A stretch of 9,634 nucleotides of DNA, from the NCBI GenBank assembly GCA_021820645.1, contig JAKADJ010000067.1, positions 1 to 9,634 of the forward strand, given 5' to 3'. The stretch's first letter is position 1; each line of letters begins with the position of its first letter. This stretch comes from Bacillota bacterium (lineage in GTDB: Bacteria > Bacillota_E > Sulfobacillia > Sulfobacillales > Sulfobacillaceae). The position numbers and the translations under genes are program-made. Below, one piece after another: positions 18 to 6,613 of this stretch. The notes below the pieces were generated by a model, which was not told the DNA's origin, did no database searches, and saw only the letters and a list, made by a program, of their open reading frames with translations.

Positions 18-46
18 TTTACCCAACCTAGACCCCATGCTACAAT
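18..46 (+). promoter_or_regulatory. Sigma-A type promoter of the DUF190-crcB operon
   Basis: TTTACC at 18-23 and TACAAT at 41-46 are separated by exactly 17 bases. Transcription would start near 53, leaving about 25 bases before the DUF190 start at 78. That is too short to hold a crcB-motif fluoride riboswitch between promoter and gene. The same hexamer pair with the same spacer recurs before folE. Confidence 0.6.
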
Positions 47-77
47 GAGCGAGTATCGAGTACCGGAGGTGGCAATC

Positions 78-416
78 ATGTCGGCTACAATCTCAGGGCA
101 AGCTCAACGATTAAGAATTTTTATCGGGGAATCCGACCACTATCATCATAAACCCCTCTATCACGCGATAGTCCTAAAGGCTCGTGAAATGGGTATGGCC
201 GGAGCCACGGTGATGCGGGCGTTCGAAGGTTTCGGTCCTTCGAGTCGGATTCATACGCAAAACCTCTTGGACTTATCGACGGACTTGCCTGTCGTCATCG
301 AAATCGTTGATAGTGAAGAATATATCAACAAGTTTCTACCCGTTCTCGACACGATGGTATCCGCTGGTCTCGTTACCGTGGACCCCGTCACTATTTATAA
401 ATATACACACACCTAA
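78..416 (+). CDS. DUF190 family protein (PII-like fold), companion of CrcB
   Basis: A 112-residue protein of the DUF190 family, usual length about 100-120. Family members have a PII-like ferredoxin fold and are often encoded beside crcB; their biochemical role is not settled, and a regulatory or ligand-sensing role in ion handling is only inferred. The start at 78 is chosen because GGAGGT lies at 65-70 with a 7-base spacer. The upstream in-frame ATG at 45 falls inside the -10 hexamer and has no ribosome site. Family-like features are the opening strand (RLRIFIGESD), the Gly/Ala-rich turn (MGMAGATVMRAFEGFG, about residues 38-53), the PVVIEIVD strand and a short C-terminal strand. It is the first gene of a four-gene plus-strand cluster; the next gene follows after 28 bases. 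Confidence 0.85.
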   Translation: MSATISGQAQRLRIFIGESDHYHHKPLYHAIVLKAREMGMAGATVMRAFEGFGPSSRIHTQNLLDLSTDLPVVIEIVDSEEYINKFLPVLDTMVSAGLVTVDPVTIYKYTHT

Positions 417-444
417 GGCATACGACATAAGGGGGCCCCGTGGT

Positions 445-807
445 TTGGATATCGTGTACGTGTTCTTGGGCGGAAGTGGCGGCGCCATGGCACGCTTTGG
501 GTTGAGTCAATACGTCGGTCAAAGAACCTCCGCTACCCTGCCTGTGGCCACGATGGTCATCAATAGTCTCGGATGCCTCCTGATTGGATTTCTTATAGCG
601 AGCCCTCTCGTGCATACCGTCGGACTCCTGTTGCTCGATGTGGGGTTTACGGGTGCGTTCACAACCTTTTCGACCTTTTCTTATGAGACGATCCGACTCG
701 TGGAACAAGGCGAGTTCTGGGCCGCGGTAACAAATCCAATCCTCAGTGTCGGTCTAGGACTCCTGATGGTGGTCGTGGGCACCTGGTTGGGTGGGAATTT
801 TTCGTGA
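445..807 (+). CDS. crcB: CrcB/Fluc fluoride channel subunit 1
   Basis: A 120-residue membrane protein of the CrcB/Fluc family, which exports toxic fluoride as small four-helix channel subunits in antiparallel dimers. The family signature GFTGAFTTFSTF lies at about residues 67-78. The conserved Asn of the second helix (N40 in MVINSLGCLLIGF) and the N-terminal GG..GA..R motif (residues 9-17) are present. The start is a TTG at 445, preceded by AAGGGGG at 429-435 with a 9-base spacer. The open frame extends upstream into the DUF190 gene, but that part is non-homologous and lacks a ribosome site. The stop overlaps the GTG start of the second crcB by four bases (GTGA), so translation of the two subunits is probably coupled. 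Paired unequal crcB genes usually encode the two subunits of a heterodimeric channel. Confidence 0.92.
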   Translation: MDIVYVFLGGSGGAMARFGLSQYVGQRTSATLPVATMVINSLGCLLIGFLIASPLVHTVGLLLLDVGFTGAFTTFSTFSYETIRLVEQGEFWAAVTNPILSVGLGLLMVVVGTWLGGNFS

Positions 808-1214
808 TCCGTTCGTATTTATGGGTAGGTTTAGGGGGGGGCATTGGGGCTGTCTTGCGGTATAGCCTCAGCCTAATTATTCCGAGTCAAACATTCCCTT
901 GGAGTTTTTTTGTGATCAACCTGTCCGGATCCCTCGTGATTGGTGTGGTAATGACGCTCGTAATCGATTACGCGATCCTGTCGCAAGATGCCCGTCTATT
1001 CATTGCGGTGGGAATCCTCGGGGGATATACCACGTTTTCTACGTTCACCTATGGGCTCTACCATCTCCTATTACAAAACTTAGTAGGGCGGAGTATTCTA
1101 TATGGAGCAGGAAGTATTCTCGGTGGGCTCTTGGCCACGGTGCTGGGCATGTCACTAGCCCGAGCCTGGATCGAGTGGCGTCAATCCGAATCGGAGGATC
1201 CTGATGAAACCTAA
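804..1214 (+). CDS. crcB: CrcB/Fluc fluoride channel subunit 2
   Basis: A 136-residue second CrcB/Fluc subunit, starting at the GTG of the GTGA overlap with the first crcB; GGGTGGGA just upstream can serve as ribosome site. It carries GGGIGAVLRY (residues 11-20), FFVINLSGSLVIG with the conserved Asn near residue 39, and ILGGYTTFSTF at about residues 71-81. Four hydrophobic segments are visible. It diverges clearly from its partner and has an acidic, hydrophilic tail (last 15 residues, ESEDPDET) that the first copy lacks. Such asymmetry is expected of opposite-topology partners, although charge-bias topology was not calculated. It is co-transcribed with DUF190 and the first crcB. No terminator is seen before the methyltransferase gene that follows. 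Confidence 0.92.
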   Translation: MIRSYLWVGLGGGIGAVLRYSLSLIIPSQTFPWSFFVINLSGSLVIGVVMTLVIDYAILSQDARLFIAVGILGGYTTFSTFTYGLYHLLLQNLVGRSILYGAGSILGGLLATVLGMSLARAWIEWRQSESEDPDET

Positions 1215-4984: not shown

Positions 4985-6349
4985 TTAGGGTACCGAGGTA
5001 ACCGCCACGGTGCCCTGATCCACGTGCCATCGAATGCTAAGACCTAAACTATTACATAGCGTCTCGTGGTGAGATACCACCACCAACGTTCCGGGATATC
5101 GCCTAAGCCCGCGGCAAATGGCCTCTAAACTATCCTCATCAAGATGATGTTCCGGTTCATCCAGAATGAGCGTGGGTACCCCCGTCGCGGTGAGGCGCGA
5201 GAGGTTTAACCGCATGCGTTCCCCATCGCTTAACTCAGATACCTGTTGGGACAAGTGTTTCGCACTAAAACCATAGGCTTGCAGCCAGGCGCGGTCGCGC
5301 CCCATCGGAAGCCGGATGCCTCGTCTAAAATAGGTCAAGACATCCGTCGTTTCAGCATCTACCACTTGATAAAGTCGGCCTATGGTCCCGAGTGGCCCGT
5401 GAAAATACCCGGCGCGGCGTCCAACATTTCCACACATGGCGCCGAGTAAAGACGTCTTGCCGCTTCCATTAGGTCCCGTTACCCGAACACGATCACCGCC
5501 CTTAAGGGTCAACCAGAGATGGCGAAGCAGCGGATGCGTCCACCCCACCTCCCCATCCTCTACCCGCCACACCACCCGGGGCACGACTTCTATATGGTCC
5601 CAAGTAAAGCGTAGCGAATGGGCATCTAAGGGCGCTTTTAGGTACTCCTCAGATTCCATGCGATGCGTCAAACGCATCTCCCGACTCTTAGCTTTTTTGG
5701 CAACCTTTTTTGCCAGACGCCGTTGACCACTGTCGATAGTCCCAGATTCGGTCCGCCTCGCCTGCTCTTTAGTCGCTTGAATGTCTGTAAATAGCCTTCT
5801 GGTCTCCCGTTCTTGGGCCTCAAAGGCGCGTCGATAGGCCTGTTCTTGCTGTTCCACCATCTGAAGCGCAAATTCTGGAGGGCCGCCAAAGTCTTCAATG
5901 ACGTGATTGCGGATCCACCAAGTGCGTGTAGCCACCTGGTTTAAAAACGCCAGGTCGTGGCTGACAATGATTTGTAGGCTATGGCTTAATCGCAACAGCC
6001 ATCGGGCTAGCGCTTCTTGATGGGTGTCATCCAAATGTCGAGTCGGTTCGTCCAGCAAGATGAATCGGGGGTCGGTTCTGAGGCATGCCTCAAGGGTCAT
6101 CCAGGCTCGTTGTCCCCACGAGCCAGTGAGTCCTGGATCGGGGTCGTGGTACCATGCCGGATCGCCGAAAGGGTTCCGGATCGATCCCTGGTCGGGACGC
6201 AATGCCCCGGCGAGGATTTTTAGCAGAGTAGTCTTACCGGTGCCGTTGGCGCCGATAAGGGCAATCGGTTCTCCAGCTTCCGCAGTCAGAGAAACCTTCT
6301 GATACAAGTTCACGCCGTCGATCTGTTTGGTTATATTCGATAATCGCAA
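4985..6349 (-). CDS. ABC-F family ATPase, antibiotic-resistance (Vga/Msr/Lsa-like) architecture
   Basis: A 454-residue soluble twin-ATPase protein without membrane segments, so of the ABC-F class that works on the ribosome. In the first domain Walker A is GANGTGKT (about residues 33-40), Walker B FILLDEPTRHLD (96-107) and the H-loop SHD (near 131). In the second domain Walker A is GPNGSGKT (292-299), the signature LSDGE (373-377), Walker B LILDEPEHHLD (394-404) and the H-loop SHH (near 427). Both catalytic glutamates are present. The linker (about 164-239) is charged and helical, with a basic tip (RRLAKKVAKKAK), as in the P-site tRNA interaction motif. Only about 34 residues separate Walker A from the signature in domain 1, against about 74 in domain 2; Vga and Msr proteins show this shortening. 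The domain 1 signature is degenerate (LTGSWGQ). The preferred start is TTG at 6349, six bases after GGGGTGAT. Confidence 0.88.
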   Translation of the reverse strand: MRLSNITKQIDGVNLYQKVSLTAEAGEPIALIGANGTGKTTLLKILAGALRPDQGSIRNPFGDPAWYHDPDPGLTGSWGQRAWMTLEACLRTDPRFILLDEPTRHLDDTHQEALARWLLRLSHSLQIIVSHDLAFLNQVATRTWWIRNHVIEDFGGPPEFALQMVEQQEQAYRRAFEAQERETRRLFTDIQATKEQARRTESGTIDSGQRRLAKKVAKKAKSREMRLTHRMESEEYLKAPLDAHSLRFTWDHIEVVPRVVWRVEDGEVGWTHPLLRHLWLTLKGGDRVRVTGPNGSGKTSLLGAMCGNVGRRAGYFHGPLGTIGRLYQVVDAETTDVLTYFRRGIRLPMGRDRAWLQAYGFSAKHLSQQVSELSDGERMRLNLSRLTATGVPTLILDEPEHHLDEDSLEAICRGLRRYPGTLVVVSHHETLCNSLGLSIRWHVDQGTVAVTSVP

Positions 6350-6365
6350 CAAATTATCACCCCAC

Positions 6366-6399
6366 AAAAAGGGGCCGTCCACATCCGTTGTGGCCCCTT
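6366..6399 (-). terminator. Intrinsic terminator (attenuator) in the leader of the ABC-F gene
   Basis: On the minus strand AAGGGGCC (6399-6392) pairs perfectly with GGCCCCTT (6376-6369) around a 15-base loop, and the 3' arm runs straight into TTTTT (6370-6366). The ABC-F ribosome site GGGGTGAT begins two bases later (6363-6356). A terminator between promoter and gene, next to the ribosome site, implies regulation by premature termination. A short reading frame ends on its first bases. Confidence 0.7.
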
Positions 6400-6427
6400 A
6401 GGATTTGATGTGGGCTGAAAACTTCAT
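6398..6427 (-). CDS. Candidate leader peptide MKFSAHIKS of the ABC-F attenuator
   Basis: A nine-codon reading frame, MKFSAHIKS then TAA. The stop codon uses the first two bases of the terminator's 5' arm, so a ribosome halted anywhere in this frame would touch the hairpin. GAGGGG (6444-6439) lies 11 bases before the ATG, and a closer GGTG lies at 6436-6433. Leader peptides of similar length regulate msr, vga-like and erm genes by drug-induced stalling. This sequence matches no leader peptide I can recall. It is coding only if translated; the evidence is position and ribosome site. Confidence 0.45.
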   Translation of the reverse strand: MKFSAHIKS

Positions 6428-6443
6428 GTTGACACCATCCCCT

Positions 6444-6473
6444 CTATCGTGACCAGTGCCGCTTCTTTCTCAT
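6444..6473 (-). CDS. Candidate upstream reading frame MRKKRHWSR in the ABC-F leader
   Basis: A nine-codon frame, very basic (MRKKRHWSR, stop TAG). Its ATG lies one base after the stop of the preceding short frame, so re-initiation is possible. Its own ribosome site is weak. Its stop overlaps the ribosome site used by the MKFSAHIKS frame. It could be chance. Confidence 0.25.
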   Translation of the reverse strand: MRKKRHWSR

Positions 6474-6474
6474 T

Positions 6475-6501
6475 CTAACGGGTACTAACCGGCTTTACCA
6501 T
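6475..6501 (-). CDS. Candidate upstream reading frame MVKPVSTR in the ABC-F leader
   Basis: An eight-codon frame (MVKPVSTR, stop TAG). GGTGA (6512-6508) lies six bases before the ATG, an adequate site, and overlaps the stop of the preceding 23-codon frame. The chain of closely spaced short frames is its main support. Confidence 0.25.
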   Translation of the reverse strand: MVKPVSTR

Positions 6502-6508
6502 CTCTATC

Positions 6509-6580
6509 TCACCACGCGGGCACCCACGCAAATCCTGTCGATCGCACGGGACATCCCATCACATTCCCGTCGGTGGTCAC
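6509..6580 (-). CDS. Candidate 23-residue upstream reading frame in the ABC-F leader
   Basis: A GTG-initiated frame of 23 codons, beginning VTTDGNVMG and ending GFAWVPAW, stop TGA. It has the best ribosome site of the leader: AGGAG (6590-6586) five bases before the GTG. Its codons for GFAWV contain GGATTTGCGTGGG, which is complementary to part of the last leader frame. No promoter with clear sigma-A hexamers was found upstream. Confidence 0.3.
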   Translation of the reverse strand: MTTDGNVMGCPVRSTGFAWVPAW

Positions 6581-6597
6581 CTTTTCTCCTCGATTAA

Positions 6598-6613
6598 CGT
6601 TACGTCAGTAACG
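6598..6613. repeat. Inverted repeat CGTTAC-GTCA-GTAACG
   Basis: A perfect 6-base inverted repeat with a 4-base centre (6598-6603 and 6608-6613). It lies upstream of the first ABC-F leader frame and about 140 bases before the serine hydrolase start. Size and symmetry suit a dimeric regulator, but no regulator gene is adjacent. Confidence 0.4.

What the first reader, a model, noticed from the sequence alone, without database searches (positions are those of the whole stretch)
6350..6600. Transcription-attenuation leader before an ABC-F ribosome-protection-like gene
On the minus strand the ABC-F start is preceded immediately by an intrinsic terminator (8-bp GC-rich stem, 15-base loop, TTTTT), two bases from the ribosome site. 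A nine-codon frame (MKFSAHIKS) ends on the terminator's first bases. Established knowledge: antibiotic-resistance ABC-F genes such as vmlR, msr(D) and the Listeria vga-like gene are induced by ribosome-mediated attenuation with exactly these parts. The leader peptide here matches none I recall, so this may be an undescribed drug- or stress-sensing attenuator in an environmental, probably acidophilic, lineage.
Basis: partly seen in the sequence, partly recalled or inferred. Interest (0 to 1): 0.75.

Follow-up and report, generated by a model that had tools for sequence, protein, structure and literature searches.

The report
Ribosome-sensing switch before ABC-F gene
A tiny leader gene and two competing RNA hairpins in front of a probable antibiotic-protection gene of a Sulfobacillus-like bacterium look like a switch that frees the gene's ribosome-binding site when ribosomes get stuck early, a new example of a known kind of control.

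Summary
The parts are real: 9-codon frame (6427-6398), 8-bp stem with 15-base loop (6399-6369), T5, a Shine-Dalgarno (SD) two bases on, ABC-F start TTG 6352. Nine of 154 genomes searched in the class hold this ABC-F clade, and all nine leaders carry an 8-9-codon frame with its own SD, then three alternating arms: 2 (GGGG-like), 3 (GCCCC-like), 4 (GGGGTGAT-like, the ABC-F SD). In the eight relatives 2:3 has no good U-tract, while 3:4 hides the SD and in several carries a U-run; so 2:3 looks like the ON hairpin. Folding with a modelled ribosome says that stalling on early codons opens the SD and finishing the frame closes it, above shuffled controls in eight of nine leaders. In the window a ribosome on codons 1-5 leaves 2:3 formed, so early-stalling drugs could not relieve a 2:3 terminator. 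Best reading: ribosome-mediated attenuation acting mainly on translation start, closest to C. difficile cplR and to ermC. The protein is VmlR/Vga-like but below curated cut-offs. New member of a known kind; stalling, inducer and resistance are untested.

The parts
6472..6477 (-). TAGAAT, possible -10 element; transcript start about 6465 (inferred)
   Evidence: By eye; also TAGAAT in L010; not in the consensus list (no good -35).
6439..6445 (-). AGAGGGG, Shine-Dalgarno of the leader frame
   Evidence: Anti-SD duplex of the upstream stretch -15.7 kcal/mol.
6398..6427 (-). Leader frame MKFSAHIKS, 9 codons + TAA
   Evidence: 8-9-codon frame in 9 of 9 leaders.
6410..6417 (-). Segment 1: leader codons CAGCCCAC that can pair with the ABC-F SD
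   Evidence: Minimum-energy folds of the window and L010; no covariation support.
6392..6399 (-). Arm 2, AAGGGGCC
6369..6376 (-). Arm 3, GGCCCCTT; pairs with arm 2 (ON) or, through GCCCC 6375-6371, with arm 4 (OFF)
6366..6370 (-).
   Evidence: not kept in L010.
6356..6365 (-). Arm 4, GTGGGGTGAT, Shine-Dalgarno of the ABC-F gene
   Evidence: Anti-SD duplex -11.3 kcal/mol; GGGGTGAT in 8 of 9 leaders.
4985..6352 (-). ABC-F gene, TTG start, 455 aa, VmlR/Vga-like

Best explanation
A ribosome-mediated attenuator whose main output in this lineage is access to the ABC-F Shine-Dalgarno. When ribosomes translate the 9-codon frame to its end, they cover arm 2, arm 3 pairs with the SD (arm 4), and little ABC-F is made; without a ribosome, leader-frame bases pair with the SD instead. 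When a ribosome is stuck on the first codons (P site about 2-5), segment 1 is masked, arm 2 holds arm 3, and the SD is left free, so ABC-F is translated. The ABC-F then protects or rescues ribosomes and the switch closes again. Shown by computation: conserved parts, co-varying 2:3 arms, early-open and late-closed folding. Inferred: that ribosomes really stall there, that a peptidyl-transferase drug (pleuromutilin, lincosamide or streptogramin A, by likeness to VmlR) is the trigger, and that the protein confers resistance. In several relatives 3:4 probably also terminates transcription.
For: Nine of nine distinct leaders have frame, SD and arms 2, 3, 4. Frame with SD: 0-3 of 500 shuffles per leader. 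Own 2:3 arms bind better than swapped ones (16 of 20000 permutations as good; the true pairing is the best of 720 on six less similar leaders; own partner is the best in its row for 4 of 9). SD-opening cost in the window: 9.2 kcal/mol with no ribosome, 3.9-5.9 with the P site at codons 1-5, 7.7-7.9 at codons 6-10; L010: 6.2, 0.7-3.4, 5.0-6.3. Late-minus-early contrast against shuffles: W 3/150, L010 0, L011 5, L012 0, L013 0, L015 1, L016 5, L029 0, L014 68; combined z 7.4. A covariance model gives E <= 1e-15 only for the 8 training leaders in 42 genomes of the order. Precedent: in cplR the SD lies inside the terminator stem and SD hiding alone keeps the gene off when the U-tract is mutated (PMC10201436, sections 20 and 21).
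Against: No RNA, ribosome or drug data. The 3:4 core never varies in eight leaders, so only L016 speaks to it. Segment-1 pairings show no matched-arm advantage (6895 and 3413 of 20000). SD hiding without a ribosome is only a little above shuffles (combined z 2.0), and the opened state is not clearly more open than shuffles (z -0.86). In the full-length window RNA, 2:3 falls to 0.61 and 0.43 with a ribosome at codons 2 and 4. L014 shows no late/early contrast; L016 gains 0.7 kcal/mol at most from codons 1-5. With the smallest footprint the open range reaches codon 7 in the window. The leaders are related, so combined z values are inflated. The window keeps a T5 after 2:3 that could end some transcripts.
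Confidence: 0.62

Rival explanations
1. Transcription attenuation: 2:3 plus T5 is an intrinsic terminator, removed by a ribosome stalled late on the frame or at its stop, in the MsrD way.
For: GC-rich stem directly followed by T5 in the window; the leader stop overlaps the stem; a ribosome at codon 7 or later reduces 2:3 to 0.000. In msrD a ribosome stalled at the stop blocks a terminator (PMC10314930, abstract and passages).
Against: Score -3.2 in the window, -19.0 in L010; no good U-tract after 2:3 in the eight relatives. Late ribosomes leave the SD buried (7.7-7.9 kcal/mol). Leader peptide ends are not conserved, unlike a stop-codon arrest peptide.
Confidence: 0.17
2. cplR-type dual control at 3:4 in the window too: the SD-hiding hairpin is also the terminator, and early stalling lifts both blocks.
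For: Terminator scores of 3:4: L011 +1.8, L013 +11.0, L015 +18.5, L029 +13.4; this is the published cplR layout.
Against: In the window the bases after arm 4 are ATAATTTG and in L010 TTATTTG; in both the top-scoring hairpin is 2:3, not 3:4.
Confidence: 0.14
3. Conserved leader without drug sensing: it reads general translation slowdown (starvation, ribosome assembly defects) or only tunes basal translation.
For: Leader peptides vary; vmlR is also induced by ribosome assembly defects (PMC9226507 abstract).
Against: Nearest proteins by profile and fold are resistance ABC-Fs.
Confidence: 0.05

Closest known systems
cplR leader of Clostridioides difficile (PMC10201436; sections 20 and 21 read, other passages seen)
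   Same: Short uORF, alternative hairpins, SD of the ABC-F gene inside the OFF hairpin, translation and transcription attenuation; relatives L011, L013, L015, L029 also score as terminators there.
   Different: The cplR uORF is Met-Arg-Ile/Met (3 codons); here 8-9 codons. In the window the OFF hairpin has no good U-run, so translation control should dominate.
vmlR leader of Bacillus subtilis (PMC9226507; abstract and passages)
   Same: uORF-sensing leader of the ABC-F whose protein is nearest by profile among solved structures; stem-loop SL-4 of vmlR hides the SD.
   Different: vmlR has an anti-antiterminator, a separate terminator hairpin and a three-residue MIN uORF in 219 nt; here about 110 nt (start inferred).
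msrD leader (PMC10314930; abstract and passages)
   Same: Leader frame running up to a terminator-like hairpin before the ABC-F start.
   Different: A stall at the stop codon removes a terminator; here that position would leave the SD buried.
ermC translation attenuator (segment scheme recalled; one remark seen in a passage of PMC6310831)
   Same: A stalled leader ribosome changes access to the gene's ribosome-binding site through alternative hairpins.
   Different: Other gene product (methyltransferase) and other leader peptide; no shared sequence was tested.

Membership tests
Resistance-type ABC-F (VmlR/Vga-like) | Two ABC domains joined by a long two-helix linker, ABC-F fold | tested here: met
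   Two ABC_tran stretches; model pLDDT 86.9, pTM 0.64, linker helices 169-214 and 218-242; top five fold matches VmlR2, VgaL, VgaA-LC, VmlR, PoxtA; profile best VmlR 5.2e-83, VmlR2 1.3e-81.
Resistance-type ABC-F (VmlR/Vga-like) | Reaches a curated NCBIfam cut-off for ribosomal-protection ABC-F | tested here: not met
   NF000355 256.4 bits against 380; Vga model 172.2 against 725. So it is like them but not filed as a member of those curated families.
Resistance-type ABC-F (VmlR/Vga-like) | Confers resistance to a ribosome drug | not testable with these tools
   Needs an experiment.
Ribosome-mediated attenuator | Short translatable leader frame with its own SD, kept in relatives | tested here: met
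   9 of 9 leaders; 0-3 of 500 shuffles.
Ribosome-mediated attenuator | Mutually exclusive hairpins, one hiding the SD or terminating | tested here: met
   2:3 and 3:4 share arm 3 in 9 of 9 leaders.
Ribosome-mediated attenuator | Ribosome position decides SD access | tested here: met
   Folding only: 8 of 9 leaders above shuffles, L014 not.
Ribosome-mediated attenuator | Drug-induced stalling and induction | not testable with these tools
   Needs toeprinting and reporters.
Transcription attenuator with intrinsic terminator at 6399-6366 | Strong stem directly followed by a U-tract, kept in relatives | tested here: inconclusive
   Hairpin kept, U-tract not: -3.2 in the window (0 as usual cut is recalled), -19.0 in L010.

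The most novel reading that the evidence does not exclude
A translation-only, ermC-like attenuator for a resistance-type ABC-F in an acidophile family: in the window's genus the OFF hairpin has lost its U-run, leader codons pair directly with the ABC-F SD, and the hairpin that looks like a terminator is the ON state. It guards an undescribed ABC-F subfamily with a shortened first ABC domain and altered motifs (SWGQ, DEPTRHLD, mostly DEPEHHLD), and senses an antibiotic or stress met in acid environments.
Probability: 0.3. Interest if true: 0.55.

Novelty: new member of a known kind. Interest (0 to 1): 0.4.

Why it matters
It extends uORF-controlled ABC-F genes to Sulfobacillus-like bacteria, hints that these hosts meet ribosome-targeting compounds, and shows how a terminator-looking hairpin can be the open state of a translation switch. 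Nine homologous leaders, some with and some without a U-run on the SD-hiding hairpin, make it testable how such switches move between transcription and translation control.

Tried and rejected
Rfam at gathering cut-offs: no match in the window or in eight relatives' loci. Consensus promoter/terminator scan: 8 promoter-like and 8 terminator-like sites, at the shuffled level. An antiterminator of leader CCACATC with loop GATGTGG looked attractive by eye, but its probability is 0.000-0.003 in every state computed for the window and L010. Segment-1 arm-swap tests gave nothing. Nine further covariance-model hits (E 3.9e-4 to 0.08): I looked at the longest frame starting near each match end; none is an ABC-F; judged chance (the search used stricter filters and scored at most 93 candidates a genome, and it missed L016). 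SD hiding within spacer plus SD alone was weaker than in shuffles (combined z -2.1), which fits 2:3 competing with 3:4 but does not prove hiding. PADLOC matches: 27 families with E-value to 0.001, best 25 seen, read as generic ATPase likeness. The six distant loci (L017-L022) were not examined for leaders. Paper searches: one search listed 8 of 1,438 papers, none useful; one search listed 12 of 1,545 and none of those 12 held 'sulfobacill'.

Full report
Observation. On the minus strand the window holds, in order: a TAGAAT that could be a -10 element (6477-6472; by eye), a leader Shine-Dalgarno (6445-6439), the frame MKFSAHIKS (6427-6398), the 8-bp stem with a 15-base loop (6399-6369), T5 (6370-6366), the SD GGGGTGAT (6363-6356) and the ABC-F start TTG (6352). 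Taken alone the hairpin is only modestly more stable than shuffles (12 of 200 as stable) and the 261-nt leader is not, so the case rests on comparison.

Relatives. The 455-aa ABC-F was searched in 154 genomes of the class: 9 have a match at E <= 1e-60, all in the window's own family (10 first-look candidates scored per genome; in the order, with 40 scored, the same 9 of 42). The contig scan gave 13 loci, 7 of them of this clade (L010-L016). Together, after duplicates were checked, these are nine distinct leaders: the window, L010, L011, L012, L013 (Sulfobacillus harzensis), L014, L015, L016 and L029. All nine have an 8-9-codon frame with an SD: MKFSAHIKS, MKDLTHIKA, MKNIPVAD (or one codon longer), VKNRVIHY, MVNFAPHT, LKKILVVC, LKKTPTVC, MFHGVKHRK, VKNIPVAH, the first letter as in the plain translation. 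Codon 2 is lysine in 7 of 9. Frames with as good an SD, length and place arise in 0-3 of 500 shuffles of each leader. By eye, L010 keeps the window's neighbouring frames while L014 has another upstream gene (it reads like formate-tetrahydrofolate ligase, not tested), so leader and ABC-F seem to travel together.

Arms. After the frame all nine leaders have arm 2, arm 3 and arm 4, where arm 3 can pair with either neighbour. In eight, arm 3 ends in GCCCC and arm 4 is GGGGTGAT; in L016 all three differ (CCGGGA, TCCCGG, CCGGGGG) yet still pair both ways. Own 2:3 arms bind at least as well as swapped arms in all but 16 of 20000 permutations, and the true assignment is the best of 720 on six less similar leaders, although the own partner is the best of its row in only 4 of 9. 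The 3:4 core never varies in the eight aligned leaders, so covariation neither supports nor challenges it there. Seven more relatives known only as proteins (P0003, P0005, P0007, P0008, P0011, P0018, P0019) have N-termini called too far upstream; those residues read back to codons compatible with the same SD region (inference).

Which hairpin is OFF? With a d'Aubenton-Carafa type score (formula recalled) the best hairpin of each leader is: window 2:3 -3.2, L010 2:3 -19.0, L011 3:4 +1.8, L012 3:4 -36.3, L013 3:4 +11.0, L014 3:4 -5.1, L015 3:4 +18.5, L016 2:3 -28.1, L029 3:4 +13.4. So the four leaders that score as terminators do so with the hairpin that buries the SD, and 2:3 is its competitor. 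The window's 2:3 is borderline, so some termination there cannot be excluded.

Ribosome position. I folded each leader with the bases under a modelled ribosome kept single-stranded. In the window, opening the SD costs 9.2 kcal/mol with no ribosome, 3.9-5.9 with the P site at codons 1-5 and 7.7-7.9 at codons 6-10; in L010 6.2, 0.7-3.4 and 5.0-6.3. In the transcript that ends at the U-run, 2:3 of the window stays at 0.88-0.98 for codons 1-5, is 0.10 at codon 6 and 0.000 from codon 7; in the full-length RNA it falls to 0.61 and 0.43 at codons 2 and 4. Thus early stalling opens the SD but would not relieve a 2:3 terminator; late stalling relieves 2:3 but leaves the SD buried. The best gain from codons 1-5 is 5.3 (window), 5.5 (L010), 3.2 (L011), 6.4 (L012), 3.0 (L013), 1.7 (L014), 2.8 (L015), 0.7 (L016) and 2.2 (L029) kcal/mol; the early/late pattern holds at 50 C, and with the smallest footprint the open range reaches codon 7 in the window. 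The late-minus-early contrast beats shuffles in eight of nine leaders (0-5 of 150) but not in L014 (68 of 150); combined z 7.4, inflated by relatedness.

Results against. Basal SD hiding is only a little above shuffles (combined z 2.0) and the opened state is not clearly more open than in shuffles (z -0.86), though the difference between them is (z 3.6; W, L010 and L012 carry it). Within spacer plus SD alone the SD is less hidden than in shuffles (z -2.1). Segment-1 pairings do not covary. L014 and L016 are weak cases.

Specificity. A covariance model of the leader over 42 genomes of the order returns the eight training leaders at E <= 1e-15 and nine weak hits (3.9e-4 to 0.08), none followed by an ABC-F in the frames I looked at; L016, not in the training set, is missed.

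The protein. Nearest solved proteins by profile are VmlR (5.2e-83) and VmlR2 (1.3e-81), then human ABCF1 (5.4e-66) and Vga(A)-LC (6.1e-66) (names where the table says ExpZ). The top five fold matches are resistance ABC-Fs, the sixth is EttA. It falls below the NCBIfam cut-off for ribosomal-protection ABC-F (256.4 of 380 bits). The first ABC domain is short: query 59-80 stands against VmlR 68-113. In 24 aligned clade proteins SWG and DEPTRHLD are invariant in the first ABC domain, and the second has mostly DEPEHHLD.

Literature. For cplR (PMC10201436, sections 20 and 21 read) the SD lies in the terminator stem, the uORF start is essential, and SD hiding alone keeps the gene off when the U-tract is mutated. 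uORFs reported there: CplR MR[I/M], VmlR MIN, VmlR2 MK[L/Q], LsaA MAGN. vmlR (PMC9226507), msrD (PMC10314930) and HflXr (PMC6310831) were seen as abstract and passages. No paper in the library holds both 'Sulfobacillus' and 'ABC-F'; a looser search listed 12 of 1,545 papers, none of those 12 with 'sulfobacill'. More than that about print I cannot say.

Mechanism and verdict. I judge that this is a ribosome-mediated attenuator (about 0.9) and that in this lineage it acts mainly by opening and closing the ABC-F SD (0.62). Shown by computation: conserved parts, co-varying ON hairpin, position-dependent folding. Inferred: transcript start, stalling, inducer, resistance.

Noticed in passing
window 3712, 5744, 6465, 6466, 6468, 7434: The window differs from the held genome copy G000 at six of 4365 compared positions; three lie together at 6465-6468, near the inferred transcript start.
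   Followed up: partly
window 4985-6352: The ABC-F clade (24 proteins aligned) has a shortened first ABC domain, invariant SWG at the first signature motif, invariant DEPTRHLD in ABC1, mostly DEPEHHLD in ABC2, and a very conserved linker stretch around RRLAKKVAKKAKSRE.
   Followed up: partly
window 6353-6382; P0003, P0005, P0007, P0008, P0011, P0018, P0019: Database gene calls start inside the leader (for example at the GTG of GGGGTGAT), adding false N-terminal residues that carry the switch sequence.
   Followed up: partly
window 6598-6613: Inverted repeat CGTTACTGACGTAACG in the spacer toward the divergent gene with a Beta-lactamase2 domain; only partly kept in L010.
   Followed up: no
window 45-1214: Three consecutive plus-strand frames that look by eye like a small DUF190-type protein and two CrcB-type fluoride exporters; not tested with a family search.
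   Followed up: no
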